Positions 4,851 through 56,610 of a DNA stretch of 59,970 bases are shown here, piece after piece. Each line of letters opens with the position of its first letter. Position 1 is the first letter of the stretch. A program made the position numbers and the translations under genes. The stretch comes from a virus. The stretch lies in the IMG/VR virus record IMGVR_UViG_3300030101_003657, positions 1 through 59,970 of that record, one strand, 5' to 3'. The notes under the pieces are model-generated. The model saw only the letters and a program-made list of their open reading frames with translations. It ran no database searches and had not been told where the DNA came from.

Positions 4851-6401
4851 ATGCAAGAATTAAAGTTAGTTAAAGAACTGGCTTTTGGCGATACTGCTAG
4901 AAGTCAGGTCTTAACTGGCGTTGAAAAGTTAACCAACGCTGTTGGTTCTACGCTGGGCGCTAGTGGAAAGTGTGTTATACTTGAAGATGGCAATGGTCAA
5001 CCAATTATAACAAAAGATGGTGTAACAGTAGCAAATTCAATAACGCTACACAATCCATTAGAAAATATTGGAGCAACACTTATTAAAGAGGCTGCTCAAA
5101 AAACAGTTAAAGACGCAGGTGATGGTACAACAACCGCAACTATATTAGCAAAAGCTATATTAGATAATGCCTACAAAGTTTCAGATCAAACATCGCTAAG
5201 AGATTTAAAACATGGCATTAATCAAGGTGTTGAAAACGTAGTTAGTTACCTTAACAAGAAGAGAAAAAAAGTTAAAGGTAAAAAAATAGATCAAGTAGCT
5301 ACAATATCTGCTAACAATGATAAAGAGTTAGGAAAAATTATAAGCGAAGCTTTTAAACTAGTAGATGAAACAGGTATTGTAATGATGGAAACCAATGAAC
5401 AACCTGAAACTGTAGTTGAGCTAATAGAAGGAGTTCAGTATGATCAAGCATTAAAAAACAATCATTTTATAAACAACAAAGAAAAAGGTACAGCTGAACT
5501 TGAAAATCCAATGGTATTAATAGTAGAATCTAAAATACCTAACATAAGAAAAATACAAGCAGTACTAGAGTATATTATAAAAAAAGGTAAAAGTTTATTA
5601 ATAATTGCTGATGTTGATCAACAAGTGGTTTCTGCGCTGGCTATGAATAAAGTAAAGGGTAATATAAAGGTTAACATCATAGATGCACCAGTGTACGGTA
5701 TAAATAAAAAAGATACACTAAGTGATTTATGTTCTGTTACTGGTGCTACTCTTATTAATGAAGATTTAGGAGATGATATGGATCTTATACAACCTGAACA
5801 TTTAGGTACTTGTATAAAGTCTATAACAAATCAAGAGGAAACCATATTGCAAGTTGATTTGTCTAACAAACCAGAAGTAGATGAAACTATTAAGATGTTA
5901 GAAAATCAAATTAAAGAAACTAAAAACCCAAACATTGTAGTTAGACTCGAAAAAAGATTAGCTAAATTAAAAGCTAAAGTAGCAACTGTTAAAGTAGGTG
6001 CTAACTCAGAAGTAGAGTTAAAAGAAAAGAAGGACAGGGTTGAAGATGCTATTTGTGCTACAAAAGCCGCGATCAAAGAAGGTATAGTACCAGGAGGTGG
6101 CATAGCGCTACTAAACGCCTCAATGAAACTTAAAGCTGAAAATATAGGTGAAGAAGTTTTATATAATGCTATACGTAAACCTTATGAAATAATATTGCGT
6201 AATGCAGGTATAAACTACGATAAAGTTTCAATTAGAGAAGAAGGCATAGGATTAGATGTGGTTACAGGAAATGCGGTTAATATGGTTAAAGCCGGAATTA
6301 TAGATCCTCTGCTAGTTACTAAAAGCGCACTGATGAACGCGGCTTCAGTAGCTACGACAATATTATCAACTGATTGTGTAATTAATAACATACGAGCATG
6401 A
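4851..6401 (+). CDS. groEL: Phage-encoded chaperonin GroEL (516 aa)
   Basis: Recognisable over its full length. The nucleotide-binding motif DAGDGTTTAT lies near residues 83-92, TKDGVTVA near 45-52, the GGG-AL equatorial motif (PGGGIAL) near 407-413, and the closing LDVVTGNAVNMVKAGIIDP block near 465-485. It is shorter than bacterial GroEL (about 545) and lacks the GGM-rich tail, ending CVINNIRA. The product would form the ATP-driven folding ring, presumably for capsid or tail proteins. The groES gene overlaps its end by 4 nt, so the pair is co-translated. Confidence 0.97.
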   Translation: MQELKLVKELAFGDTARSQVLTGVEKLTNAVGSTLGASGKCVILEDGNGQPIITKDGVTVANSITLHNPLENIGATLIKEAAQKTVKDAGDGTTTATILAKAILDNAYKVSDQTSLRDLKHGINQGVENVVSYLNKKRKKVKGKKIDQVATISANNDKELGKIISEAFKLVDETGIVMMETNEQPETVVELIEGVQYDQALKNNHFINNKEKGTAELENPMVLIVESKIPNIRKIQAVLEYIIKKGKSLLIIADVDQQVVSALAMNKVKGNIKVNIIDAPVYGINKKDTLSDLCSVTGATLINEDLGDDMDLIQPEHLGTCIKSITNQEETILQVDLSNKPEVDETIKMLENQIKETKNPNIVVRLEKRLAKLKAKVATVKVGANSEVELKEKKDRVEDAICATKAAIKEGIVPGGGIALLNASMKLKAENIGEEVLYNAIRKPYEIILRNAGINYDKVSIREEGIGLDVVTGNAVNMVKAGIIDPLLVTKSALMNAASVATTILSTDCVINNIRA

Positions 6402-16955: not shown

Positions 16956-17175
16956 CATAATTAGAAAGATTAGCATAGGTTCTGATTATAAAAACGACGC
17001 TATGCATTATTCTATTGGTCAAGAAGTATATGGTGGTCACATTATATGTGATATATTAAATAATGAAAAAAGCGGAGAGTATTCTATTTATATAAAAAAA
17101 AATAACGAAGTACTTCCTTGGAAAAGATTTAATAGTCAAATGGCTATAGCTGTAGAATTTGATCTTAAATACTAA
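16948..17175 (+). CDS. Small hypothetical protein (75 aa)
   Basis: Beta-rich small protein: RKISIGSDYKNDAMHYSIGQ, then GGHIICDILNN and EYSIYIKKNNEVLPWKRF. Overlaps the upstream gene by 8 nt and shares one base with the next ATG, so it is part of the run leading to the terminase. No family recognised; the fold could be a small beta barrel. Confidence 0.65.
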   Translation: MSSIIRKISIGSDYKNDAMHYSIGQEVYGGHIICDILNNEKSGEYSIYIKKNNEVLPWKRFNSQMAIAVEFDLKY

Positions 17176-17768
17176 TGAAAAGTTTATATCAGTTTTTAGT
17201 AAAGCCATATTCTAGTAGATATGATAATACTAGAGATATAGATGGCAAAGAATTAATTATAAATACAAGTATTGAAGATCATAAGTTTGTAAGCAAAAAA
17301 GCAGTTGTTGTATCTACTCCAATTGCTTTTAATACAGAGGTTAAGTGTGGTGATATAGTTTACGTTCATCATAATATTTTTAGAAGATACTATGATATGA
17401 AAGGTAAAGAAAAAAACTCATCTACCTTTTTTAAAAATGAATTATACTTTTGTAGCCTAGATCAAGTATATATGTATAATTTAAAACCACATTTAGATTA
17501 TTGTTTTGTAAAACCAATATTAAATAAATCACATCTAAGCAGTGAAAAAGAGCAAGAACATTTTGGTATACTAAAATACTCTAATAAGTCCTTAGAAGCT
17601 GTAGGATTAAAACCTGGAGAACTTGTGATATTTACACCCAACTCTGAATTTGAGTTTATTATAGAAGGCGAACGTCTTTATTGTATGAAATCTAATGATA
17701 TAGCATTAACTTATGAACACGAAGGAAACGAAAAAGAAAATAATCCAAGCTGGGCAAAAAGCAGTTGA
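17175..17768 (+). CDS. Tandem cpn10 (GroES-like) fold protein (197 aa)
   Basis: Two GroES-like halves can be laid on the phage GroES. Half one, residues 4-100: YQFLVKPYSSRY, GKELI, KKAVVVSTP, VKCGDIVYVHH, SLDQVYMY. Half two, about 107-180: DYCFVKPIL, HFGIL, LKPGELVIFTPNSEFEFIIEGERLYCMKSNDIAL. The expected mobile loop is only moderately conserved. A second co-chaperonin, or a structural protein using the fold, are both possible. It overlaps the TerS candidate by 56 nt. Confidence 0.6.
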   Translation: MKSLYQFLVKPYSSRYDNTRDIDGKELIINTSIEDHKFVSKKAVVVSTPIAFNTEVKCGDIVYVHHNIFRRYYDMKGKEKNSSTFFKNELYFCSLDQVYMYNLKPHLDYCFVKPILNKSHLSSEKEQEHFGILKYSNKSLEAVGLKPGELVIFTPNSEFEFIIEGERLYCMKSNDIALTYEHEGNEKENNPSWAKSS

Positions 17769-36328: not shown

Positions 36329-36949
36329 ATGAGTAGAAGTAAAAAAGAAGCAGGAGAAGCTGAGGCTGATGGGATATTTGCAGGTTTAAAAACTCTTAGA
36401 CAAGCTGCTAAAGATTCTGTAAATAACAGAGCTGATGAATTAGCAGCTTTAGTAGCTAATAGACAGGATGTTATAAATCCATACGCAAACGTAACTAACA
36501 CTTACGCTGACTTAACTAACCAATTTGCTAACTTAGGTGTTGCCACTCAAGCCGCCGAGTTCCAAGCAGAGCAAGCTGACATAGCTTTAGCCAACACATT
36601 GGACACAATAGCTGCTACAGGTGCTGGCGCAGGTGGAGCTACTGCTTTGGCTCAAGCAGCTTTACAAAGTAAAAGAGGTATATCAGCTAGCCTAGAAAAG
36701 CAAGAGGCTGCAAATCAAAAAGCCGCTGCTAGAGGCGCTGCTAATGTAGATCAACTAAAAGCTCAAGGCGAAAGATCTATGCAAATGGCTAAGGCTCAAG
36801 GTGAAAGATTTGCTTTTCAAATTACTGAAAATAGAGAACAACAAGAAATTGATAGACAATCTAATTTATTAGACCAAGAAAGACAAGCTTTAGAAAACGC
36901 TATGAATGCACAAAATGAAGCTGATATTTACGAATCTCAACAATACTAA
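36329..36949 (+). CDS. Internal virion protein candidate, Ala/Gln/Asn-rich (206 aa)
   Basis: Helical Ala/Gln/Asn/Glu-rich protein with NPYANVTNTYADLTNQFANLG and a Gly/Ala-rich patch GAGAGGATALAQAALQSK, then a Gln-rich coiled coil. This style (short NPY/TN motifs before a Gln/Ala helix) is seen in internal or ejection proteins of podovirus-like phages. It is followed by two further genes that end in the giant virion protein, consistent with an ejection-protein cluster. Confidence 0.65.
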   Translation: MSRSKKEAGEAEADGIFAGLKTLRQAAKDSVNNRADELAALVANRQDVINPYANVTNTYADLTNQFANLGVATQAAEFQAEQADIALANTLDTIAATGAGAGGATALAQAALQSKRGISASLEKQEAANQKAAARGAANVDQLKAQGERSMQMAKAQGERFAFQITENREQQEIDRQSNLLDQERQALENAMNAQNEADIYESQQY

Positions 36950-36950
36950 A

Positions 36951-38384
36951 ATGAGTTACAAAAACCCTGCAAAAGTAATTAAAAACTCACCTACTGGAGG
37001 AGGTTTTTCAAATTCTGTAGCTGTTAGACAGGAAAAAATAAATGAAAGTACAAACAAAAAAAATATATCTTCTCTAATTCAAGGTGGTTTAAATGCTGTT
37101 TTAGCAAAACAAAATGGATTAAACAACCTAAACGAAAAAGTAACAAAGTCTAGTTTAGGAATTTATAACAGAATAGAGTCAGATGGATTTAAAACTGGTT
37201 TTAGTGAGTTTGACAGTAAGATGGAAAATTTACTTTTTAACGCTGTAACTAAGTTTAATAAAATAAAAGGTAGTATAGAAAATGGTACTTCTCAAGACTT
37301 AGAGTTAAGTAAAAGAGGTTTAGGGTCTATAAACAACATGATAGATCAAGCTGGTGATGGTACTAAAAATATTTTAGCTGTTAGTAGAGCTATAAAAGAA
37401 CAAGTTAATACAAATAAGTTAGATGAACAGTTTAGTGTTACTGGAGCGCCTGCACATCAATTAGCTATTATAGAAAAAGCTAGTAACGGTAGTGGAGATA
37501 TAGAAATTTTAGAGGAAAACGATAATATAATATTAATTGACAATAACCCTGGAGACTGGTATATTGAGGATGATTATGGTAATTTAACAAAGGGAACTGG
37601 ACCTGCAAGATTGAACATGTTTGAGTTCAATAGAAGCGTTATGGATAAAAATAATAATTACTTAAAGTACAAAGTAGACCCTACAAAAGTAGAAGAGTCC
37701 GCGTGGAGCGAAATTGTTAAGCAAGATAGTGGTTACAATCCTAACTATGTAACAGATGAAGACGGTAAGTATAGTATGACTGTTGAACAACAAAAAGCTT
37801 TTAAAGATAAAGTAACAGGTTTAGCTAGTTATAAAAAAGATGATAAAGGTTTTTATACTTATCTACCTGGTGACTACAACAACGAATACAATGGTTTTGC
37901 TACATTATTAAGAAAAAGAGGAGAAAGTATATGGGAAGACGAAGGTAACATGCAGGCGATTGTTAAAAGTAAAAATTTAAAATCTCAATGGCCTAAAATA
38001 TTTCCACAACCAGGCACTAAGGAGTTTAACGAGTTTGTAGAAAACCAATACATACCTGCTTTAGAATGGTTAGCTGAAGAAACATTAAGAAAAAATTCTC
38101 AAGATATTAAATTAGATCAACCAGGTGATAATATGTCAAGTAATGAAAATAAAACTACTGGTAGTAAGGAAAATAAAAACAAAAGCCCTTATAAAACTCA
38201 AGAAGAGTTTAACAACGCTTGGAACAATGCTAATCCTGGAGATAAACTAATTGGGCTTGATGGAAAAGAATATACTAAACCTGTGGAACTTGGGGGGTCG
38301 CAAGATCGCACATCCGCTGATGGGCAAACTAGGAGTTTCAATATGATGGAGAAAGAAGCTTTAGGTAAATTGAAAATGAATTAA
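36951..38384 (+). CDS. Internal virion protein candidate (477 aa)
   Basis: Start placed at ATG 36951 (MSYKNPAKVIKNSP), one base after the previous stop; an earlier in-frame start at 36906 would lie inside the upstream gene. Contains a Lys/Asn-rich helical middle and an acidic segment DIEILEENDNIILIDNN with GDWYIEDDYGN, and ends in a Lys/Asn-rich tail before QTRSFNMMEKEALGKLKMN. No domain recognised. Gene order places it with the ejection proteins. Confidence 0.6.
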   Translation: MSYKNPAKVIKNSPTGGGFSNSVAVRQEKINESTNKKNISSLIQGGLNAVLAKQNGLNNLNEKVTKSSLGIYNRIESDGFKTGFSEFDSKMENLLFNAVTKFNKIKGSIENGTSQDLELSKRGLGSINNMIDQAGDGTKNILAVSRAIKEQVNTNKLDEQFSVTGAPAHQLAIIEKASNGSGDIEILEENDNIILIDNNPGDWYIEDDYGNLTKGTGPARLNMFEFNRSVMDKNNNYLKYKVDPTKVEESAWSEIVKQDSGYNPNYVTDEDGKYSMTVEQQKAFKDKVTGLASYKKDDKGFYTYLPGDYNNEYNGFATLLRKRGESIWEDEGNMQAIVKSKNLKSQWPKIFPQPGTKEFNEFVENQYIPALEWLAEETLRKNSQDIKLDQPGDNMSSNENKTTGSKENKNKSPYKTQEEFNNAWNNANPGDKLIGLDGKEYTKPVELGGSQDRTSADGQTRSFNMMEKEALGKLKMN

Positions 38385-38386
38385 TT

Positions 38387-41300
38387 ATGGAAGAATTTAG
38401 ACCACCTGCAGATGCTGTAGAATTAGTAAGTAATGTTTTTATTCCACCATCAGACGCTATAGAGGTTTCTCAACAAGACGACGAAAAAAAGAAGAAAGCT
38501 GTTACAGAGAACACTGCGAATGTAGCAGCGGAAGATCAAAGCAGTACGGATTTATTATCGGGAAATGGTTCGTCGGACTCTCAAAAAAATAAAAAACCTA
38601 TTGTTTCTAGAGAGGATTTTAAATTAGAAGAAGATGAGTTTATTAAGAAAGTTTCTGAAAATCCTTTATTATCTCATTTAAAAATACAAACTACTTTTCA
38701 ACCTGGATATGATCAAATATATGTAAAAGGCTCCACAGGTGAGGAAGAGTTTGATCTAGACAGTAAGTGGAATAACTCTTTAAGTAGTATGGGCCCAGGT
38801 AGTACTCCTGATCCAACGGCTGGTGATAAAGAATATAAAAGGTTTTTAGATTTTATTGAAAAAGAAATAGCTACATCTTCACCAGAAGCAAAAACTTTAG
38901 GTAGAAAAGGATTAGCAGAGTTTCAAAACGAAGATGGATCTTACGAATTAGAGCATATAGATTATTTTCAAAAAAAGAAAATTAAATTCAACGAACAAGA
39001 AGCTGTTAAAGTAGTAGAAGGCATAGAGAACGAAGTAGAAGAAACTCTTGCCAATGCTAACAAAATGTTAGGCTTAGCTGAAGATGAAGCAGGTTTGTTA
39101 CCTACCTTAAATGATGATCAAAAATCTAAATTAAGAAGACAATCTTACAACAATTACAGAGCTCAAGAAAAAGTAATAAAAGACGAAAATGCCAATATTG
39201 CTAATAAAGCCGGAGCTAACATAACTGAAGAATCTTTTAACAAAATATTTAACGCTGTATATGATGACGCTTATGCTAAAGCTAATCAAAGATCTATAAC
39301 AGATTACAACAATTACACATCTAAGTTTGAAAGAAGTGAGGATTTTAAAAACAATTTTAATGATGAAATGCTTTCTATTGGTGACAATAGAGAGTTATCA
39401 GAGTTAAATAAAAAAATTACTAGTTCTCAAGAAGCTATAGATAACTACACCGATAGATTAGAAAATGAAAACACGACACCAAATGAAAGAGCTTCTATAC
39501 AAAGTCAACTAAATAAAGCTATAAAAAATAAAGAAGATAATATAAAAAAGTTTGAGGAAAAAAGTAAAATATTTTCTTTCAGTATAGAGGGTGAGCAAAA
39601 TATAAGTAGACTTACAGATGCTAGTGGTAATTGGATAAACCAAACTGTTGTTGATGAAGAAAGTAGAAAATCATTAAATAAGTTAGTTAAATCTACAGAG
39701 CAATCTGCTTTAATAGAAGCTAATGTAAGTAATCCTTCTAATCCTAAGTTATCTCCAGCTGAAAACTTAAGAAATATGAGTGATGATGCTGTTTATAACT
39801 TACAAAAAGCTATTGAAGTTGGAAACGAAAGAAAAGTATTTATACCTTTCGATGTTTCAGAAGCTGGATCTAGTTCTGTTCTTGAATTTTTACCTGGACA
39901 AAAAGCTATCTGGTCTAAAATGATAAAAATACCTGGTGTTAATATTAAGAATTTAACTAATAAAAGTGGTGCTGAATTAACTTATTCTCAACTAGCTCAA
40001 GCAGGTATAAACTCAGAAGAGTTTGAAGGTATTATAGATCAATTTGGCATTAGCTTAGATAAAGATAGAGATCTTTTTGGTGATGCTGGCTTAATTAGTC
40101 AAAAAGAAATAGATCAATATAAAGCTTGGGAAAAAAAATATAGAGAAGAAAAAGCTGTAGCTACAGGCTTGTGGAACGCTACAAATTTAAATCAAGACTA
40201 CGGTAGTATAACTAAACCTGGAGATAAGTGGTATGATATACCAGGTCATCTCAACAATTTAGCTAGCTCTACTACTGGAACTTTTTCCGAACGATGGTTT
40301 GATGCTAGTCCTTCTGAAGCTAAAAAAGCTAGAGGTTTTGGTAGTGAAAAAGGAAATGAAGCTGATATAACTAAAGAACTTAATATATTAAAAGATCAAT
40401 ATAATAACTCACAAGCTGTAAAAGACGGTGAGTTAAAAAGTATTGAATTTACAAAAGACCAAGAAAAAGCATTATCTAGTACGATGTATCAAGACGTAGC
40501 AAATGGTGTTGGTGAGTTTGTGCCTATGATAATTGAATTAGCTGCTGTTAGTTTAGCTACTGAAGGTGCTGCTACTATACCAATGATCGCTTCTAGATTA
40601 TCTAGGATGGCACCTTTGACAAAACATTTACTTTACGGTGGTATTGAAGAAGTTAAAATGCAAGCGCTATTTGATATGCCACCAACGGGTGGTGCTGCCT
40701 TTTATACTTTAGGCCATGCTACTCGTAACATGTTCAAGTTTTCAGGTCCATTGAGGTTTTTACAAGGAGCATTTGACAAGACAATAAAGTCAGGTGTTAT
40801 TGGTGCTGCTTCTTCAGAATTTGCTCATTTAACAGAAAAAGGTTTTGAACAATTAGCTGGAGATGGGACTTCTTTTTCTAATGAGTTTAATAAATTTTAT
40901 TCTGACCAAGATGAAGTTACTAAGCGTATAATAACTAACGCTGCGGTATTTGGTTTAACTGGAGTTCATAATCTTAAAAAACTAGATTACTCTACTCAAA
41001 GAATGAAATTTAATACGCTTAATGAAATAAGTAACAAGATAGAAGCTATAGAGAAAGATATAAGTGATAGAAAAAGTAATATAGATAAATTAGAAAAGAA
41101 AGGCGGTGTAATTATACCTAAAGAGTTAGAGGTTAAGTTAACACCTGAAGACATTAAAAAATATGCTACAAAGGAAGAGCTACAGAAGCTAGATCAATAC
41201 ACTAGTGATTTTTATAATGTTAACAAAATGTTTCAAGCAGAGGCTTTAGCTAAAGGTTTAGATCATAAAAAAGTCCCACTACAAGAATTTGAAAAAAACT

Positions 41301-44300
41301 TTAACAACGCTTATACTAAGCCAATAAATGAAATGCTAAACAAACTAACTGGTGGCAATTATAATCCACCTGAAGTAAAGTTTACAACTGATAGAGAGTT
41401 TTTTACTGGAAACGAAACGGCTAAGTACGTCTCTGGCGCAGGTAAATCAAAAGGAGGAGTTATATATTTTGATATAAACAAGTATGTTCCTGGTAAAGCT
41501 ATACATGAATTCACTCACTTAGCTTTAGATATTTTTCACAAACAAAACCCAACAGCTAAAGAAAATATGTTAAAAAAGTTTAGCGAAATGTTTAAAGGTG
41601 TTGATTTAGGAGAGGTTACTGGAAACAAAAATATAGAGGGTTTTAAAGGTGAAGAACTGATGGAGGAGGTAGGTGAAGCTTATAAGCCTGAAATAATAGA
41701 AGCTTCAACAAGAGCTGGTAATGCAAAAGCTGGAGAGATGTTAAAGCAAGAGGAGTTTGTTACGTTTATAGCTGAAATGCTTACCAAGCCTGAGTTCTAT
41801 TATCAAAACACTAAAAAGGCTAGTAACATACTTAAAGACATGAAAGATTATGTTACTAACGTACTGCAAGGTAACGGAATGATGGAGGTTAAAGCACCTG
41901 AAACAGCTCAAGAAATGGTTAACTTAATTGTTAACATGGGTGAAAATGTTAGACAAGGTAGACAGTTTACTAATCAATTTGAAAAAGCTTTTTTAAAAGA
42001 TATAAATATAGAGGGTTTATATTTTGAGCAAAAACTATCTGGCAATCCAGAAGGTAAGTCTAGTTTTGTAGAAACAAAAGCTAACGCTAAAGCTTCTAAA
42101 GATTTAGTTGAAAGTATAGTTGAAGAAAATACTAGGTTAGTAGGAGATCTTAAAGAAGCTATAGAGTCTGAAAATTTAACCAAACAAATAGATATAAAGA
42201 ACGATTTAGCTTTAAACAATGAGCCTCTAATCCAAGACTTTGTTAATCAAAAATTCAAACCAGGTTTAGGTGTAACTAGAGATGAATTTAAATCAGGAGT
42301 TTACAGTCATGTTTTTGATAAAGTAAACAAAACTTATAATCCAATAAAAAACCCTGAGTATGGAGCTTATTTAAGACAAGTACTATTTGGAGGTGGTGGT
42401 TTTGGCGGAGGCCGACTTGGTGATATATTAAGAGAAATAGGTCAAAAAGAAGATTTATTTCTCAAAAGTACTGAAGATCCTAACGTGCAAAGAGAACTAA
42501 AAAATATAGAACAAGATGCTCCAGCACCTGTAGAAACTTCTAAAAAAGGAGATATTGTAGTGGCAAAAGAATTAAATAAAAGATTGAATAATGTAGCTGA
42601 GCCATTAGTGTCTGCTATTAAAGAAAAAATACCTACTGATCTAAAATTACAAGAAGAGTTTTTAAAAGATAAAACTTATAAAACTTTAAAAGATTTAGCA
42701 GCTAAAGAAACTCAAGAGATGTTTGGTATAAAACCAAAGCCAGGTAATTTAACTAAGTCAGATGTTAAAAACGCTCAAATGTTTATTAACAGAAATCCTG
42801 ACTTATTTTATTCTTTACTACCTAAACAACATACTACTAAAAGAGTTAACATTGGAACCAAAAACGAACCTAAGTTTGTAACTAGGCCAGATAAAGCAAC
42901 TGGAGTTCAAAACGTGTTGTTAGACGCTTTTTATAATAAAGGAACTAGAAAAGATAACTTAACACCTTGGACTAAAAAACCTTCTTCAGATGTTAAAACA
43001 GCAGAGTTTTTAGAATTATTTGGTATAACAGATAGAAACAATCCAAACCTATACAAGAAAGATAGCAATGTTAGTGCCAGAATAAAAGCTTTAGTTGAAC
43101 AAACAGGTAGAATAATTACTAATCAAACTGTAAGAGAAGTTACAGGAGCCACAAAAGTAGGAGAAGGTAGAGCAGAAACTATGGCTTCTAAAGAATTAGT
43201 TGAGTCTTTATTGGGAGCTTATGATCTTGTTTCTAAAAATAGAATACTTACTAAAGCTGATAAAGCAAGGTTATTAAAAACTTTAACTAAAGAAAACGAA
43301 AAGAAAGAAATAAGAGACTTAGACGGTGCTAGATTATTTGCTGCTATTGAAAGAGGTTTAAAGAGAGAAGACATAAAGAAAGTAAGTGACTTAAACTTAG
43401 ATAAAGACATAGAGTTGTTTGAGCAGTTAACTATAGAGGATATTGCTAGAAGAGAAGAGATCACACCTGCTGAAGTTAGAGAAAGATACATGAGTGAAGA
43501 AATGGCTTCTATAACTGATGGTAAGAAACTAAAAGCTAGTATGCCTGGAACAGTATATAGATCAGCTGAAGAAAGAGGAAAATCTGCTACTTTTAAAAAA
43601 GCTAAACCTTATCACATAGCTTTGATAGAGGAGATGATACCTAGAGGATCTAAGTTTAGTGAAATGCCACAGAAATACCAAAAAATGGTAATGAGCACTA
43701 TGGGTATGGGGGATTCTAGAGGTAAAACAAATGGTAAAAGTTTTACGTTTAAACAATATAATGTTGCGGAGGGGAATTACACTGGTTTATTAGAGGCTGT
43801 ATACGGCATAAAAGAAGCAAATTTAAAAGGTAAAGGAGAACCTATTGAATCATTTGCTGAAAACATCAACATATCATCTCCAGGTGGTGGTAAGAAAAAA
43901 ATTACTGAAGCTGAAATTAAATCTAGTAGTGTAGAAGAATTCCAAAAATTAGCCGGCAAAGCTATATTAGGTAGAGGACAAACAAGTGTTGACAAAGTTT
44001 TAAATGCTAATAAAGAGTCTTTAAAAAGAATATATAATTCTGCTAAAAATGTAGTTAAAAATGCTAAAGATCCTATAAAAGCTTTAGATCATATAATAGA
44101 CTTAATGCTTGCTCAAACTAATAGATCCATAGGTGGGATTAAAGGTTTAGCTGGAATTGAAAGTGCAACTATGGAAGGTATGAGAGGTTCTAATCCAGAG
44201 CTAGCAAAAGAACTTCACAATGAACACTTAACTGAGTTACTTACCATGACTAAGAACTTTGGTAAGATGATGGAAAGGTTTATTAATAAAGAACAATCTT

Positions 44301-47300
44301 CAAGAAGCGTTGATCTTCAGCTAGACAGAATGGTTGAAGATTATAACCAAGGTGTAATAAGTGAACAGCGTAGAGAGCTTAAGGATTTTACTGGTGCTTC
44401 TAAAATGGATTATTTTAACAATAAACTATTCTTAGGTAAAGATGCTTTTAAACAAATACCATTAAGCGAATCTACATTTGCTGAAGCAAAAAACATGGCT
44501 GAGGTTATAAGAAATGAAGCTACAAAATCTATATTAGATAAAATTAAAAACACACCTTATAGTAAATTAACTCTCACTGGCGTTATTGCTAAACAAAAAA
44601 TTGAAAACGCTAAAGAAATAAAAAAAGTAGAAAGCTCAAATAGAAAAGTTGCTGAACAAGCATCTATGGCTAGTAAAGATATGTCTACTTCTAGAATTGT
44701 AAAAGAGTTAAATAAAAGAGATGAAGCTTTAAGATTAGCTCACAAAGCTAATAAAGTAGTTAAGAAAGCTAGGGTTTTTGATTTTGATGACACAGTTGCT
44801 AGAACTAATAGTAAAGTGTTCGCTACTAGAGGTAATGATAGAAAAGTTTTAACAGCTGAAGAGTTTGCAAAACAAGGAGAAGGATTAGTCAATGAAGGTT
44901 GGAAAATGGATTTTTCAGACTTTAATAGAGTTGTTGAAGGTAAAAAAGGACCTTTGTTTGAAGTTATGAAAAAAATGAAAGAAGCAGCTGGTGATAGAGA
45001 CATGTTTATATTAACAGCTAGAGCTCCTGAATCTGCACCTGCTATCAAAAGATTTTTAGATGCTATGGGTATTAAAATACCTTTAGAAAATATAACTGGT
45101 TTAGGTAATTCAACTGGTAAAGCTAAGGCTGATTGGTTAGTTGGCAAAGCAGCAGAAGGTTATAATGACTTTTATTTTGCCGACGATGCTAAACAGAATG
45201 TTAAAGCCGTTCGTGACGCGTTAGAGGTTTTAGATGTTAAATCTAAAGTTCAACAAGTTTATGCTGCTAGAGATTTATCAGGTGAATTTAATAGAATACT
45301 AGAAGAAAAAACGGGTATAGGTAGAGAAAAAGTATTTTCAGATATTAAAGCTGAAATAAGAGGTAACAAAGCTAAGAAAGTAAAATTCTTTATACCACCG
45401 TCAGCTGAAGACTTCTTAGGTTTATTATATAGTACCTTACCTAAAGGTGAGAAAGGAACTAAAGCTTTAGATTTTTATCAGAAAAACTTATTTGATCCAT
45501 ATACTAGAGCTACTGATAACTTATCTACAGATAGAGTTAATTTAATGGCTGATTTTAAAGCGCTTAAAAAAGAATTAGACGTACCTAAAGATCTTAGAAA
45601 ACAAACTGAATCTGGTTTTACTAACGAACAAGCTGTTAGAGTTTATTTGTGGAATAAAACTGGAATAGAAATACCTGGTTTGTCTAAAAGTGATTTTAAA
45701 GAGTTATATGATATCGTGCAGAAAAATCCTAAACTTCAAGCTTTTGCTGAGCAAATATTAAGCATAACTAAAGGTGATGGTTACTCTGTTCCAGGTCAGC
45801 ATTGGCAAGCTGGAACTATAACAACAGATCTTATAGATGTTTTAAATACCACAAAAAGAGCTAAGTATTTAGAACCTTGGAAAGAAAACATTGATATTAT
45901 TTTTAGTAAAGAAAATATGAACAAGCTTGAAGCTGCTTTTGGTCCTAAATATAGAGAGGCTATGGAGAACATACTTACAAGGATGAAATCTGGCAGCAAT
46001 AGAGTAGCTGGTGGAAATAGGCTAAGCAATCAAGTTTTAGATTACGTAAATCAGTCAACAGGTGTTACAATGTTTTTTAACACCAGATCAGCATTATTAC
46101 AAACTATATCATCTGCTAACTTTATTAATTGGAGTTTTAACAATCCACTTAGAGCAGGGCAAGCTTTTGCTAATCAACCTCAATACTGGAAAGACTTTGT
46201 TGAATTAATGAACTCTGACTATTTAAAAGATAGACGTAATGGTTTAAAATTAAATATATCTGAAAGCGAAATAGCAGATGCTGCCAAAACATCTAAGAAT
46301 AAGGCTAAAGCAGCTATTAGTTATATAATAGAAAAAGGTTATATGCCAACTAGGTTTGCTGATAGTTTTGCTATAGCGTCCGGTGGCGCTATGTTTTATA
46401 GAAATAGAATAAAAGATCTTGTTAAAAAAGGAATGACAGAAGCAAAAGCTAAAGAAATAGCAATGAAAGAGTTTAGACAAGCTTCTGAAAAATCTCAACA
46501 GTCTTCTGATCCAAGTAAGATATCTCAACAACAAGCTGGTGATTTAGGTAGAATAATATTACAATATGTTAATACACCTATGCAATACGCTAGAATCCAA
46601 AAAAGAGATATACAAGATATAATTAATAGAAGACCTATGCAAGGTAAAACATTGGCTCAAAGTAATAGAATTAGACTATCAAGAATAGCTTATTATTCTT
46701 TCTTACAGAATTTAATGTTTAACGCTCTACAACAAGGAGCATTTGCTTTAGGATTTGGAGATGACGACAAAGAGTTGACAGAAAAACAAATGGAAAGTAA
46801 GGCTAAATTTAAACAAGATAAGTTATTTAACACCGTTAATGGTATGCTTGACTCTCAATTAAGAGGATTTGGCTTAGGTGGTGTTACTGTACAAGTTCTC
46901 AAAAACCTAGGTATAGACATATATAAAAGATCTAAAAAAGATAGACCTGAATATGTAGACTCTTGGATAACGTTGTTAGAATTTTCACCTTCTATAAAAA
47001 GCAAGTTATCTAGATTTAAATCAGCAGCTTATCCTTTTGACACTAAAAAACGAAGACAAGAGGTGTTTGATAAAGGATTTAGTTTAGATAATCCAGCTTA
47101 TGAATCCATGGCTAAGGTTATTACAGCTACAACTAATGTTCCACTAGATAGAATGTATAGCAAAATAGACAATCTTAAACATGCAATGGCTGATGAAACC
47201 GAAGCTTGGCAATCTGTTGCTAACGTGTTAGGATGGCCAAGTTGGCAGTTAGAGCAAAGAGAATACACTAATAACGTTGAGTTAACACCTATGCAAAAAG

Positions 47301-47665
47301 AAGTACAAAAGCAAACTAAAGAATACGAAAAATATAAAGAAGCTGAAGGATCAACTGATTACGAAGTTATAAAGAGGTTAAACTCTTCTCAACAAATTAA
47401 AATGTTAAAAGATTTAGGTTATGATAGTTATACAATTAAAAAAGCTAAATCAGAAAAAGACAAAATTAATTTAATAATAAAAGTAAATAGTGGAGAAGAA
47501 ATAAAAATAAATAAAGAAGAAAAAGAAGCTGCTAAATACAAAGCTTTAAGCAAGGCGGAGCAAGTAAGAAAACTAGATAGCTTAGGACTAAGTAAAGCTG
47601 CTATAAGAAAGTTAAAGTATGAAGCAGATAGAGTTAAAAAGCTTTTAAAATTAATGAATAAATAA
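38387..47665 (+). CDS. Giant multidomain virion protein with HExxH and HAD domains (3092 aa)
   Basis: N-terminus has PPADAVELV and PPSDAIEVS repeats and a long charged helical region. Residues about 700-820 are hydrophobic (GEFVPMIIELAAVSLATEG). H1040-E-F-T-H1044 is a zinc-peptidase motif (KAIHEFTHLALDI). A HAD-fold domain spans about 2127-2290 with DFDDT at 2132-2136, a FILTAR strand and FADDAKQNV. The C-terminal third is helical (FNTRSALLQTISSANFINW). This architecture matches large polyvalent internal virion proteins that enter the host with the DNA. Stop is followed by two terminator hairpins. Confidence 0.82.
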   Translation: MEEFRPPADAVELVSNVFIPPSDAIEVSQQDDEKKKKAVTENTANVAAEDQSSTDLLSGNGSSDSQKNKKPIVSREDFKLEEDEFIKKVSENPLLSHLKIQTTFQPGYDQIYVKGSTGEEEFDLDSKWNNSLSSMGPGSTPDPTAGDKEYKRFLDFIEKEIATSSPEAKTLGRKGLAEFQNEDGSYELEHIDYFQKKKIKFNEQEAVKVVEGIENEVEETLANANKMLGLAEDEAGLLPTLNDDQKSKLRRQSYNNYRAQEKVIKDENANIANKAGANITEESFNKIFNAVYDDAYAKANQRSITDYNNYTSKFERSEDFKNNFNDEMLSIGDNRELSELNKKITSSQEAIDNYTDRLENENTTPNERASIQSQLNKAIKNKEDNIKKFEEKSKIFSFSIEGEQNISRLTDASGNWINQTVVDEESRKSLNKLVKSTEQSALIEANVSNPSNPKLSPAENLRNMSDDAVYNLQKAIEVGNERKVFIPFDVSEAGSSSVLEFLPGQKAIWSKMIKIPGVNIKNLTNKSGAELTYSQLAQAGINSEEFEGIIDQFGISLDKDRDLFGDAGLISQKEIDQYKAWEKKYREEKAVATGLWNATNLNQDYGSITKPGDKWYDIPGHLNNLASSTTGTFSERWFDASPSEAKKARGFGSEKGNEADITKELNILKDQYNNSQAVKDGELKSIEFTKDQEKALSSTMYQDVANGVGEFVPMIIELAAVSLATEGAATIPMIASRLSRMAPLTKHLLYGGIEEVKMQALFDMPPTGGAAFYTLGHATRNMFKFSGPLRFLQGAFDKTIKSGVIGAASSEFAHLTEKGFEQLAGDGTSFSNEFNKFYSDQDEVTKRIITNAAVFGLTGVHNLKKLDYSTQRMKFNTLNEISNKIEAIEKDISDRKSNIDKLEKKGGVIIPKELEVKLTPEDIKKYATKEELQKLDQYTSDFYNVNKMFQAEALAKGLDHKKVPLQEFEKNFNNAYTKPINEMLNKLTGGNYNPPEVKFTTDREFFTGNETAKYVSGAGKSKGGVIYFDINKYVPGKAIHEFTHLALDIFHKQNPTAKENMLKKFSEMFKGVDLGEVTGNKNIEGFKGEELMEEVGEAYKPEIIEASTRAGNAKAGEMLKQEEFVTFIAEMLTKPEFYYQNTKKASNILKDMKDYVTNVLQGNGMMEVKAPETAQEMVNLIVNMGENVRQGRQFTNQFEKAFLKDINIEGLYFEQKLSGNPEGKSSFVETKANAKASKDLVESIVEENTRLVGDLKEAIESENLTKQIDIKNDLALNNEPLIQDFVNQKFKPGLGVTRDEFKSGVYSHVFDKVNKTYNPIKNPEYGAYLRQVLFGGGGFGGGRLGDILREIGQKEDLFLKSTEDPNVQRELKNIEQDAPAPVETSKKGDIVVAKELNKRLNNVAEPLVSAIKEKIPTDLKLQEEFLKDKTYKTLKDLAAKETQEMFGIKPKPGNLTKSDVKNAQMFINRNPDLFYSLLPKQHTTKRVNIGTKNEPKFVTRPDKATGVQNVLLDAFYNKGTRKDNLTPWTKKPSSDVKTAEFLELFGITDRNNPNLYKKDSNVSARIKALVEQTGRIITNQTVREVTGATKVGEGRAETMASKELVESLLGAYDLVSKNRILTKADKARLLKTLTKENEKKEIRDLDGARLFAAIERGLKREDIKKVSDLNLDKDIELFEQLTIEDIARREEITPAEVRERYMSEEMASITDGKKLKASMPGTVYRSAEERGKSATFKKAKPYHIALIEEMIPRGSKFSEMPQKYQKMVMSTMGMGDSRGKTNGKSFTFKQYNVAEGNYTGLLEAVYGIKEANLKGKGEPIESFAENINISSPGGGKKKITEAEIKSSSVEEFQKLAGKAILGRGQTSVDKVLNANKESLKRIYNSAKNVVKNAKDPIKALDHIIDLMLAQTNRSIGGIKGLAGIESATMEGMRGSNPELAKELHNEHLTELLTMTKNFGKMMERFINKEQSSRSVDLQLDRMVEDYNQGVISEQRRELKDFTGASKMDYFNNKLFLGKDAFKQIPLSESTFAEAKNMAEVIRNEATKSILDKIKNTPYSKLTLTGVIAKQKIENAKEIKKVESSNRKVAEQASMASKDMSTSRIVKELNKRDEALRLAHKANKVVKKARVFDFDDTVARTNSKVFATRGNDRKVLTAEEFAKQGEGLVNEGWKMDFSDFNRVVEGKKGPLFEVMKKMKEAAGDRDMFILTARAPESAPAIKRFLDAMGIKIPLENITGLGNSTGKAKADWLVGKAAEGYNDFYFADDAKQNVKAVRDALEVLDVKSKVQQVYAARDLSGEFNRILEEKTGIGREKVFSDIKAEIRGNKAKKVKFFIPPSAEDFLGLLYSTLPKGEKGTKALDFYQKNLFDPYTRATDNLSTDRVNLMADFKALKKELDVPKDLRKQTESGFTNEQAVRVYLWNKTGIEIPGLSKSDFKELYDIVQKNPKLQAFAEQILSITKGDGYSVPGQHWQAGTITTDLIDVLNTTKRAKYLEPWKENIDIIFSKENMNKLEAAFGPKYREAMENILTRMKSGSNRVAGGNRLSNQVLDYVNQSTGVTMFFNTRSALLQTISSANFINWSFNNPLRAGQAFANQPQYWKDFVELMNSDYLKDRRNGLKLNISESEIADAAKTSKNKAKAAISYIIEKGYMPTRFADSFAIASGGAMFYRNRIKDLVKKGMTEAKAKEIAMKEFRQASEKSQQSSDPSKISQQQAGDLGRIILQYVNTPMQYARIQKRDIQDIINRRPMQGKTLAQSNRIRLSRIAYYSFLQNLMFNALQQGAFALGFGDDDKELTEKQMESKAKFKQDKLFNTVNGMLDSQLRGFGLGGVTVQVLKNLGIDIYKRSKKDRPEYVDSWITLLEFSPSIKSKLSRFKSAAYPFDTKKRRQEVFDKGFSLDNPAYESMAKVITATTNVPLDRMYSKIDNLKHAMADETEAWQSVANVLGWPSWQLEQREYTNNVELTPMQKEVQKQTKEYEKYKEAEGSTDYEVIKRLNSSQQIKMLKDLGYDSYTIKKAKSEKDKINLIIKVNSGEEIKINKEEKEAAKYKALSKAEQVRKLDSLGLSKAAIRKLKYEADRVKKLLKLMNK

Positions 47666-50457: not shown

Positions 50458-50752
50458 CCGTCACGTAATAAGGCAACCCAGCGTTTTTATCGTTAAAATC
50501 TAACTGTGCTGTTGATAGTTTAGGTTGTGATTTATTTTCTAATGATTCTTTAGCAGATTGAATATATAATATTGCATCCATTAACTCCTCTTGAACGTCG
50601 TTAAGATATCCTGCTAGATCTTTATGTCCACCAGTTCTTTCATCGTGTAATGTTTTACCGTATTTTTTATAACCCACATCAGAGCGTGTTACAAATTTAT
50701 CAACAACTCTCTCTACAACAGGGTCTCTAAATTTAATTTCTTTAGTCTTCAT
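50444..50752 (-). CDS. MazG-like nucleotide pyrophosphohydrolase (about 102 aa)
   Basis: The helical core YKKYGKTLHDERTGGHKDLAGYLNDVQEELMDAILYIQ carries EExxD-type acidic residues typical of MazG/all-alpha NTP pyrophosphatases. I choose ATG 50752 (MKTKEIKFRD), which overlaps the preceding gene by 11 nt; ATG 50761 is an alternative. It may hydrolyse non-canonical or excess dNTPs. It overlaps endonuclease I by 14 nt. Confidence 0.65.
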   Translation of the reverse strand: MKTKEIKFRDPVVERVVDKFVTRSDVGYKKYGKTLHDERTGGHKDLAGYLNDVQEELMDAILYIQSAKESLENKSQPKLSTAQLDFNDKNAGLPYYVTDVTT

Positions 50753-51584
50753 CTTTAACAAATGTTCCGTTAATCATTTTACCAGTACGTTTTGATATCA
50801 CCTTGTAAGCCTTGTCTATACAGTTCTCAATAGTAGTTCCGCCTAAGTGAGCTAAGTTAGTTAATACAACAACCATATCGCCAATAGCATCTTCAAACTC
50901 AGCTTGGTCATTTTTTAACACTGCTCTACCAAGCTCACCTGCTTCTTCCATTAATTTGCAGTATTGAGTTTTAGTATCGCCTCCTTTGTATAAGCCTCTT
51001 TCTCCTGCCCAGTCTCTTATTAATTGGAACCTGTCATTATCGACCCAAGCTTTACCATTTTGTTTTATTGGTCTTTCAACTAACTGTCTTATATACTTAG
51101 TATATTCATCAGATGTTTTTCTAGCGTGTACAGGTTTTATTATAGCTTCAAAAAAAGCTTTGTTGTATATGTAAGATCTATTTTTATTAAACATAGATGT
51201 TTTTACATTTTTCATTATCCAGTCTATAGACTCATTGTTTATTGTAAATGTACCATGTATTGTTTCCCATGAGTTACCTAACTCATCCATCAATCTACCT
51301 TTTAATTTGTTTACAGGCACTGGAAATGTACTGGTTTGTTCGGTTGCGTTTATATTCATTTTAAATAATTTATTATATGGTTTAAGGTCTACTTTATAGC
51401 CATAAGACTTTTGAAGTTCTAACTCGCGGCTCGATATATAATCGATGTCTGTGCTTTGATCTAGAACTTCATATTCGTCTGGGTTATAACCTTGTTGTTC
51501 GGTAACCCTGCTATTAAGATTACGTGTAACACCTATTTTTTTACCCGGTATATGGTATAAATAATATACACAATTATTATCCAT
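50742..51584 (-). CDS. GIY-YIG-like plus MazG fusion protein (280 aa)
   Basis: I use ATG 51584 (MDNNCVYYLYHIPG), giving an 8-nt overlap with the upstream gene. Residues 5-75 look like a GIY-YIG nuclease: VYYLYHIPGKKIGVTRNLNSR, then a candidate catalytic Glu in ISSRELELQKSYGY. Residues about 190-270 are MazG: KLMEEAGELGRAVLKNDQAE and DAIGDMVVVLTNLAHLGG. The middle resembles neither. This unusual fusion may couple a nucleotide pyrophosphatase to DNA cleavage or binding. Confidence 0.75.
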   Translation of the reverse strand: MDNNCVYYLYHIPGKKIGVTRNLNSRVTEQQGYNPDEYEVLDQSTDIDYISSRELELQKSYGYKVDLKPYNKLFKMNINATEQTSTFPVPVNKLKGRLMDELGNSWETIHGTFTINNESIDWIMKNVKTSMFNKNRSYIYNKAFFEAIIKPVHARKTSDEYTKYIRQLVERPIKQNGKAWVDNDRFQLIRDWAGERGLYKGGDTKTQYCKLMEEAGELGRAVLKNDQAEFEDAIGDMVVVLTNLAHLGGTTIENCIDKAYKVISKRTGKMINGTFVKDED

Positions 51585-52287
51585 AATGATCAGATTTTCT
51601 TTGTGCAAGATTATCAGGACGTTGCGGATATTTACCTAAGTCCCTGTTGTAAAGATGTAAGTTGTGTGCGAAATGAAAATAACTACCAGTTTCATAATCT
51701 GTTTCCTCTGCAACTAGTTTTTGTAATTCTGAAAAACAGTATTGATCATTACAGAAACCAAACCAGAGATCATTAGATCGCATTGTAACGCACATATTTA
51801 ATTTATCATTTACAACTGTAAACTGTATCGCATAGGTACAAGGCGTATCGCTGTCGTATGTGTTTATTTCTTTACCGTCGTATATTGATATTGCAGCTTG
51901 TCTAGTTGTAGGTTGTCGTCTTAACATTGCTATAACTCTATCTAACTGATCTTTTCTTTCCCATTGATAACCATAGTTAGAGTTAACATTACCGTTATCG
52001 TCTGCCATACGTCTCCATATAGCAGGTATTTTACCGTATAGTTCACCTAGCTTTTTAATGTTACGATCACCTGACTCATACCAACGCCACTCTGCTTTAG
52101 CGTAGTTATGTTTCCAATTACGCCAATCAAAAGTTATTATATTATTGTTAGGTTCTGTCATTTCGAAACCTATATTAAATAAAGCTCTTGTACCAGCAAA
52201 GTCTACACCATAGTAAGATATACACTGATACCAGTATTCAAAAGCTTCATTCGCTGTTTTAAATTTATTTGCGAATGTTTTTATCAT
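51577..52287 (-). CDS. Thymidylate-synthase-family enzyme, TS or dCMP hydroxymethylase (236 aa)
   Basis: Start set at ATG 52287 (MIKTFANKF); ATG 52338 would overlap the upstream gene by 74 nt. Family signatures: RRQPTTRQAAISIYD, catalytic Cys in DTPCTYAIQF, the folate/substrate loop MRSNDLWFGFCNDQYCF and AHNLHLYNRD. The position that is Asn in thymidylate synthase (LGxPFN) is Asp here (FGFCND), the change found in T4 dCMP hydroxymethylase. So the substrate could be dCMP rather than dUMP. Confidence 0.8.
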   Translation of the reverse strand: MIKTFANKFKTANEAFEYWYQCISYYGVDFAGTRALFNIGFEMTEPNNNIITFDWRNWKHNYAKAEWRWYESGDRNIKKLGELYGKIPAIWRRMADDNGNVNSNYGYQWERKDQLDRVIAMLRRQPTTRQAAISIYDGKEINTYDSDTPCTYAIQFTVVNDKLNMCVTMRSNDLWFGFCNDQYCFSELQKLVAEETDYETGSYFHFAHNLHLYNRDLGKYPQRPDNLAQRKSDHYG

Positions 52288-55860: not shown

Positions 55861-56610
55861 TCACAGATAATCAAGCACTTGCGAGTGATCCACGTTTTCT
55901 ATTAATTTTTCTACAGCTTGCTTTTTTAGCTCTGAAACTCTTACATAAGCTGATACACCTTTAATACCTAATGCAGAAGCTATTTCATTAGCGGACCATT
56001 TAGGACCATCTAAACCATAGCTTTTGTTTAGAACAAACATTTCGTTCCACTCAAGATGTTTTAATAACAAACTCATTAAGTAAGCGTTGAGTAGTGTTTC
56101 GTTATAAGGATCTGACTTTTCAGGTATTTGATAAATCATATCTTCATCATCTTGCTTAGCATCGTAAGATAAAAATATAGAATTAAAAAACATCCTAACC
56201 ATTTTTTCATCTTTAGTGCTACGCATTTCATTAAGCTTATGCTCAGGTATACGCATTGTACCTCTATTTATATCAATAGCTCTACGTATTCCGCCTCTTA
56301 TTCTTTTAGCTAAAAATGATTTTAAAGTTTTCTCTACGTCGTCAGATGCAAATAGTTTTTCTCTATCTATTTTATCTACAGCTTTACATAGTTGTAAACT
56401 ACCTTCTTGTATTATATCCATTATAGACATAACACCTGAAGCTTCTTGACTTGTAGCAAACTTTCTACTTATGTTTTCTACTAAAGGTAAGAATATTACT
56501 TTTAACTCTACAGGTTTGTAATCTATAAATCTTTTTGTTTTTATACATTGTATAGCTATTTTAATATCTTCTTTGTATCTTATATAGTTCTTTACGTTAT
56601 ATTTTTTCAT
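55861..56610 (-). CDS. Phage sigma-70-family RNA polymerase sigma factor (249 aa)
   Basis: Region 2 helix SGVMSIMDIIQEGSLQLCKAVDKID (residues 58-82), with the 2.4-like LAKRIRGGIRRAIDINRGTMRIPEHKLNEM near 104-133. C-terminal region 4 helix-turn-helix is WSANEIASALGIKGVSAYVRVSELKKQA near 210-237. Should guide host core polymerase to phage promoters, perhaps structural-gene promoters, or the 32-nt element. Overlaps the HTH gene upstream by 14 nt, pointing to a regulatory pair. Confidence 0.85.
   Translation of the reverse strand: MKKYNVKNYIRYKEDIKIAIQCIKTKRFIDYKPVELKVIFLPLVENISRKFATSQEASGVMSIMDIIQEGSLQLCKAVDKIDREKLFASDDVEKTLKSFLAKRIRGGIRRAIDINRGTMRIPEHKLNEMRSTKDEKMVRMFFNSIFLSYDAKQDDEDMIYQIPEKSDPYNETLLNAYLMSLLLKHLEWNEMFVLNKSYGLDGPKWSANEIASALGIKGVSAYVRVSELKKQAVEKLIENVDHSQVLDYL

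What the first reader, a model, noticed from the sequence alone, without database searches (positions are those of the whole stretch)
38387..47665. 3092-residue virion protein with metallopeptidase and HAD phosphatase-like domains
HEFTH (1040-1044) and a HAD core (DFDDT at 2132-2136, ILTAR, FADDAKQNV) occur in one polypeptide along with long helical parts. If ejected, it would deliver at least two enzyme activities into the host at infection, before phage transcription. An anti-defence role or self-processing by the peptidase are testable ideas.
Basis: partly seen in the sequence, partly recalled or inferred. Interest (0 to 1): 0.7.

Follow-up and report, generated by a model that had tools for sequence, protein, structure and literature searches.

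The report
Giant phage protein with two enzymes
The last gene in the virus-particle gene cluster of this marine phage makes a 3,092-residue protein that really does carry a protease-type domain and a phosphatase-type domain, most likely carried in the particle and released into the host with the DNA, and the same two-domain design recurs in a large family of related marine phages.

Summary
ORF 38387-47665 (+) encodes 3092 aa with HEFTH at 1040 and a HAD core at 2130-2272. Both are real domains. In 62 non-redundant homologues, HExxH (58) or HExxxH (3) recurs at the same place, and profile-profile comparison extends the match over about 130 residues. All four HAD motifs are retained in 61 of 62. 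The HAD domain is under strong purifying selection (dN/dS 0.02-0.09), is closest to polynucleotide-kinase/3'-phosphatase families in two libraries (below the curated cut-off where one exists), and has relatives in at least 545 viral contigs. In eight relatives a P-loop kinase, and in one an ART-like domain, sits inside the HAD domain just after motif I. The gene ends the structural module, after a 206-aa and a 492-aa gene, an order like T7 gp14-15-16. Syntenic giants of cultured flavobacterial phages are annotated "structural protein". Most likely reading: an ejected, polyvalent-type virion protein with zincin, PNKP-like HAD and a conserved C-terminal core. Virion presence, ejection, activity and anti-defence role are inferred. 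New variant of a known kind.

The parts
38387..47665 (+). Giant protein, 3092 aa, last gene of the structural module
   Evidence: homologues in at least 269 (C-terminal query) and 545 (HAD query) viral contigs
40505..40594 (+). Hydrophobic stretch, residues 707-736, the only one above threshold
   Evidence: hydropathy scan; most, not all, relatives have one in the N-terminal half
41354..41866 (+). Zincin-type metallopeptidase region, residues about 990-1160
   Evidence: alignment A3 of the window's class; profile-profile match to other classes, best probability 96.8% over 129 columns
41504..41518 (+). HEFTH, residues 1040-1044
41750..41776 (+). EEFVTFIAE, residues 1122-1130; E1123 and E1130 invariant in the window's class, candidates for the third zinc ligand
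   Evidence: assignment as ligand is inference
42593..43192 (+). Middle module of unknown function, residues 1403-1602, shared by 19 of 62 giants
44708..45286 (+). HAD domain, residues 2108-2300
   Evidence: A2 alignment of 44 members; PHROG 415 in 40/44, best 2.4e-9; NCBIfam TIGR01664 in 22/44, best 1.1e-5
44774..44794 (+). HAD motif I VFDFDDT, residues 2130-2136 (D2132, D2134)
45008..45022 (+). HAD motif II ILTAR, residues 2208-2212 (T2210)
45125..45127 (+). HAD motif III lysine K2247
   Evidence: invariant
45176..45202 (+). HAD motif IV FADDAKQNV, residues 2264-2272 (D2266, D2267)
   Evidence: invariant
45287..47266 (+). Conserved C-terminal core, residues 2301-2960 (QPQYWKD, SQQSS, NTPMQY motifs)
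   Evidence: median 60% identity to 61 relatives; homologous to Gundel_1 gp074 C-terminus, E 1.8e-10 at Z=1000
36329..36949 (+). 206-aa Ala-rich protein, conserved upstream neighbour (T7 gp14-like position)
   Evidence: 56 of 61 loci, median 49% identity; sequence
36906..38384 (+). 492-aa upstream neighbour (T7 gp15-like position), sequence not recognisable in relatives though an ORF of similar size sits there
   Evidence: 0 hits by tblastn; neighbouring ORFs

Best explanation
It is the giant ejection or cargo protein of a podovirus-type flavobacterial phage lineage and works like a phage polyvalent protein. It is made late, packed in the virion with the 206-aa and 492-aa neighbours, held there by its conserved C-terminal core, and leaves with the DNA. 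The zincin domain either cuts the polypeptide itself, to free domains, or cuts a host protein. The HAD domain is a PNKP-like phosphatase that removes phosphates from 3' ends of nucleic acid or from nucleotides in the newly infected cell; in some relatives a nested kinase would add the matching kinase step. Shown: gene, domains at sequence level, conservation, selection, gene order. Inferred: virion location, ejection, catalysis, substrates, purpose.
For: Zincin: HExxH or HExxxH in 61/62 giants although the N-terminal 1300 residues are recognisable in only 6 of 61 by tblastn; classes are linked by profile-profile alignment; HEXXXH is also a variant reported in polyvalent-protein peptidases (PMC5512222). 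HAD: four motifs invariant, motif II-IV spacing exactly 53 in 133 of 133 scored copies, PHROG 415 polynucleotide kinase and TIGR01664 DNA 3'-phosphatase as best matches, dN/dS 0.02-0.09, kinase nested inside the HAD domain in eight relatives. Virion: last gene after portal, structural genes and a small-medium-giant trio; syntenic giants annotated 'structural protein' in phi38:1, elemoA and Gundel_1; C-terminal core homologous to Gundel_1 gp074.
Against: No fold could be predicted. No Pfam domain reaches its cut-off in the window protein; PF18818 MPTase-PolyVal finds none of 20 relatives; TIGR01664 stays below its cut-off and does not find the window's own copy. 'Structural protein' in the cultured relatives is a database label; no proteomic data were seen. 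One lineage has a decayed zincin (L006) and two have a truncated HAD (L037, L110), so neither is indispensable everywhere.
Confidence: 0.55

Rival explanations
1. Plain structural or ejection-channel protein: HAD and zincin are needed for particle maturation or channel formation (for example the zincin as a maturation protease), not for acting on the host.
For: Position in the late module; HAD and core evolve at similar low rates; DdrB of P1 is cleaved before packaging (PMC5512222).
Against: HAD can be lost while the core stays (L037, L110); nested kinase or ART-like domains are hard to explain as structure.
Confidence: 0.22
2. The HAD domain hydrolyses small nucleotides or signalling molecules (anti-signalling or nucleotide scavenging) rather than healing nucleic acid ends.
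For: Weak matches to several HAD subfamilies (TIGR01509, TIGR01681, TIGR01488); the phage carries RNR, thymidylate synthase and MazG-like genes; strong conservation fits a fixed small substrate.
Against: Best and most frequent matches in two libraries are polynucleotide 3'-phosphatase types.
Confidence: 0.3
3. The zincin is only an autoprocessing device that splits the giant into several virion or cytoplasmic proteins.
For: Proposed for polyvalent proteins (PMC5512222); a zincin motif upstream of HAD and core in nearly all members.
Against: N4 virion RNAP is packaged uncleaved despite its zincin (PMC5512222); no conserved cleavage site was identified here.
Confidence: 0.3
4. The motifs are chance matches in a long helical protein.
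For: Each motif has a 2-3.5% chance in shuffles.
Against: Conserved at corresponding places in over 100 divergent homologues.
Confidence: 0.01

Closest known systems
Giant structural proteins of Pervagoviridae, Pachyviridae and Elemovirus phages (phi38:1 gp101, Gundel_1 gp074, elemoA gp21) and of Podoviridae sp. ctfjg026 (MW202828, UOF82488.1)
   Same: Giant gene of the same small-medium-giant trio; HExxH in Gundel_1, elemoA and MW202828; C-terminal core homologous in Gundel_1
   Different: No HAD motif I found in any of the four; a GNAT-like domain in Gundel_1 and DUF3293 in elemoA instead; no significant match to the window protein except Gundel_1; in Gundel_1 the trio lies before TerL
Polyvalent proteins (Iyer et al. 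2017, PMC5512222)
   Same: Several unlike enzyme domains in one huge phage protein near portal/terminase genes; zincin as hub domain; HEXXXH variants; ART-like domain in one relative
   Different: HAD or phosphatase is not mentioned in the main text (supplements not read); not matched by PF18818
T7 gp16 with gp14 and gp15 (from general knowledge); crAss001 cargo proteins (PMC10172136)
   Same: Order and relative sizes of the gene trio; very large cargo
   Different: No transglycosylase or RNA polymerase domain found; no sequence match shown
T4 PseT (PNKP)
   Same: HAD 3'-phosphatase type; some relatives add a P-loop kinase
   Different: In relatives the kinase is nested inside the HAD domain, not in tandem; the window protein has no kinase; direct similarity to PseT is weak (hhalign probability 53% over 33 columns)

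Membership tests
HAD superfamily phosphatase | Motifs I-IV (DxD, T/S, K, DD) in order | tested here: met
HAD superfamily phosphatase | Rossmannoid fold with cap | not testable with these tools
   Structure prediction closed
PNKP-type DNA/RNA 3'-phosphatase | Match above curated cut-off of TIGR01664 | tested here: not met
   22/44 members match, weakly; none in the window
PNKP-type DNA/RNA 3'-phosphatase | Associated polynucleotide kinase domain | tested here: not met
   absent in the window protein; nested AAA_33/zeta-type kinase in eight relatives
Zincin metallopeptidase | HExxH followed by a conserved Glu | tested here: met
   H1040, E1041, H1044, E1123/E1130; fold not tested
Polyvalent protein (Iyer 2017) | Multiple domains of unlike activity in one polypeptide | tested here: met
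   zincin plus HAD by sequence
Polyvalent protein (Iyer 2017) | Phage late-gene context with portal and terminase | tested here: met
Polyvalent protein (Iyer 2017) | Match to Pfam MPTase-PolyVal PF18818 | tested here: not met
   0 of 20 relatives; not
Polyvalent protein (Iyer 2017) | Delivered with the DNA | not testable with these tools
   needs virion proteomics and ejection assay
T7 gp16-type ejection protein | N-terminal lytic transglycosylase | tested here: not met
   no such Pfam or PHROG match in 16 members
N4-type virion RNA polymerase | RNA polymerase domain | tested here: not met
   no such Pfam or PHROG match in 16 members

The most novel reading that the evidence does not exclude
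A virion-delivered nucleic-acid end-healing enzyme: the HAD domain, with a kinase nested in its cap region in some relatives, repairs RNA or DNA ends cut by host defence nucleases at the first moment of infection, and the insertion point after motif I is a slot for exchangeable effector domains (kinase, ART-like).
Probability: 0.2. Interest if true: 0.8.

Novelty: new variant of a known kind. Interest (0 to 1): 0.55.

Why it matters
Large proteins carried in phage particles are known, but a PNKP-like HAD phosphatase as their most conserved enzyme, in hundreds of marine phage contigs, was not found described in the sources read here. It gives a concrete test of whether phages inject nucleic-acid repair or signal-destroying enzymes before any gene expression. 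A kinase nested inside the HAD domain is an unusual domain topology. The decayed copies in nature (L006, L037, L110) offer natural comparisons.

Tried and rejected
Single-protein Pfam, PDB and phage tblastn searches gave nothing usable for the window protein. The CREPT hit of Pfam (E 0.0046, below cut-off) was rejected as a coiled-coil match. The zincin region alone found no relatives, its alignment found 13. A2 and A3 profiles against PDB sequences gave no credible hit. The tblastn hit in Erythrobacter phage R6L (E 1e-3) was not confirmed as a HAD-bearing protein. PADLOC gave one weak hit in one relative, none in the window protein. The Holmfeldt 2013 and Hoetzinger 2021 papers were not read: one request was malformed, the other paper is not held. 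The idea that the N-terminal region is under diversifying selection is not supported: dN/dS is 0.09-0.40.

Full report
Observation. The ORF at 38387-47665 (+) starts with ATG and encodes 3092 residues without interruption. HEFTH is at 1040, VFDFDDT at 2130, ILTAR at 2208, FADDAKQNV at 2264. The window is a linear IMG/VR virus record of 59970 bases.

Phage. The genome carries TerL and portal of the kind found in Flavobacterium, Cellulophaga, Tenacibaculum and Maribacter phages (best TerL match 63.5%, an uncultured podovirus; PHROG portal and terminase families), GroEL and GroES, a ribonucleotide reductase, thymidylate synthase, primase/helicase, Erf-like annealing protein, exonuclease, a sigma-like factor and an ATP-dependent DNA ligase. 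The host is therefore probably a flavobacterium (inference). MAG contigs with relatives include Flavobacteriaceae, but also bins labelled Aliivibrio and Woesearchaeota that are probably misbinned.

Family. In 80 fetched loci the homologue is nearly always one giant ORF; complete ones have 2243-3697 residues. It follows, in most loci within about 20 bases, an ORF of 284-838 residues, is commonly preceded further upstream by an ORF of about 200-350 residues, and is often followed by a convergent 620-residue RNR gene. The sets were retrieved through conserved patterns, so frequencies are biased towards similar members.

Conservation. Against the window, 61 non-redundant relatives show median 62% identity in the HAD domain and 60% in the core (residues 2301-2960), while residues 1-1300 are recognisable in 6 and residues 1301-2090 in 14. 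In close pairs dN/dS is 0.02-0.09 for HAD, 0.04-0.12 for the core, 0.08-0.30 for the zincin and 0.09-0.40 for the N-terminal part. So the HAD domain is under the strongest constraint together with the core.

Zincin. HExxH is present in 58 of 62 giants and HExxxH in three more (L003, L061, L069); L006 has EELFH at the aligned place. In a larger set 119 of 124 have one or the other. Eleven sequence classes around the motif were compared by profile-profile alignment; the window's class aligns to the largest class over 129 columns at 96.8% probability and to the cultured isolates' class at 69%; its direct matches to some other classes are weak. In the window's class H1040, E1041, H1044, E1123 and E1130 are invariant. 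PF18818 does not recognise 20 tested relatives.

HAD. D2132, D2134, T2210, K2247, D2266 and D2267 are invariant in 16 diverse giants and in 44 aligned HAD domains. The distance from motif II to motif IV is 53 in all 133 copies scored. PHROG 415 (polynucleotide kinase) matches 40 of 44 (best 2.4e-9); NCBIfam TIGR01664 (DNA 3'-phosphatase) matches 22 of 44 (best 1.1e-5), and does not find the window copy. The HAD is truncated in L037 and L110.

Insertions in the HAD domain. In L036, L040, L048, L102, L109, L118, L119 and L195 about 200 residues with a Walker A motif lie between motif I and motif II; the two tested, L036 and L048, match AAA_33 and Zeta_toxin above Pfam cut-offs. L118 and L119 were found with the kinase itself as query, the others were not. 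In L013 an insertion at the same place matches ART-PolyVal at E 0.0012, below cut-off. L044, L049 and L077 have a different insertion after motif IV. That the insertion point corresponds to the cap position of HAD enzymes follows from general knowledge of the superfamily and was not checked on a structure.

Virion and ejection. The evidence is the gene order small-medium-giant, which resembles T7 gp14-gp15-gp16 (general knowledge), the syntenic giants annotated as structural proteins in phi38:1, elemoA and Gundel_1 and the homology of the C-terminal core to Gundel_1 gp074 (E 1.8e-10 at a search size of 1000). No proteomic data were seen. crAss001 shows that a podovirus of Bacteroidetes stores several large cargo proteins in capsid and tail (PMC10172136).

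Interpretation. Polyvalent proteins are described as multi-domain proteins injected with DNA, with zincins as the hub domain, possibly for self-processing or for attacking host proteins (PMC5512222). The window protein fits that kind, but HAD or phosphatase is not mentioned in that paper's main text (supplements not read). The strong constraint on the HAD domain suggests one fixed substrate; its nearest named families suggest 3' ends of nucleic acid. Both steps are inference.

Limits. Activity, virion presence and ejection are untested. The anti-defence idea remains a hypothesis.

Noticed in passing
36906-38384: The 492-aa gene just upstream has no recognisable homologue in 61 relatives although an ORF of similar size sits there in nearly all.
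   Followed up: partly
42593-43192 (residues 1403-1602): A 200-residue module of unknown function is shared by 19 of 62 giants and absent from the rest, patchily.
   Followed up: partly
L044 10643-11155, and the same place in L049 and L077: An extra domain is inserted after HAD motif IV and is flanked by near-duplicates of the VxxVLxxxDVKSxxQ segment.
   Followed up: no
38387-38470: Two similar short motifs near the N-terminus (RPPADAVE and IPPSDAIE); phi38:1 gp101 has its own tandem motif (ELDEFGIPVKK, ELDEFGIPLKK) at its N-terminus.
   Followed up: no
4851-6401 and 17175-17768: The phage encodes both GroEL and GroES.
   Followed up: no
55861-56610: Sigma-factor-like protein (PHROG 351, E 1.5e-14) on the minus strand.
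   Followed up: no
50742-51608: MazG-like pyrophosphatase with a region matching a phage DNA-binding protein family.
   Followed up: no
L102, L103, L105, L107, L109: Contigs of these phages sit in MAGs labelled Aliivibrio and Woesearchaeota, probably misbinned.
   Followed up: no
L082 741-12320: The giant of Podoviridae sp. ctfjg026 is annotated 'reticulocyte binding/rhoptry protein', probably a coiled-coil misannotation.
   Followed up: no
L115 4690-9189: Cyanophage PSS2 'head morphogenesis' protein carries a kinase domain related to the one nested in the HAD of L036 (30% identity, E 5e-6).
   Followed up: partly
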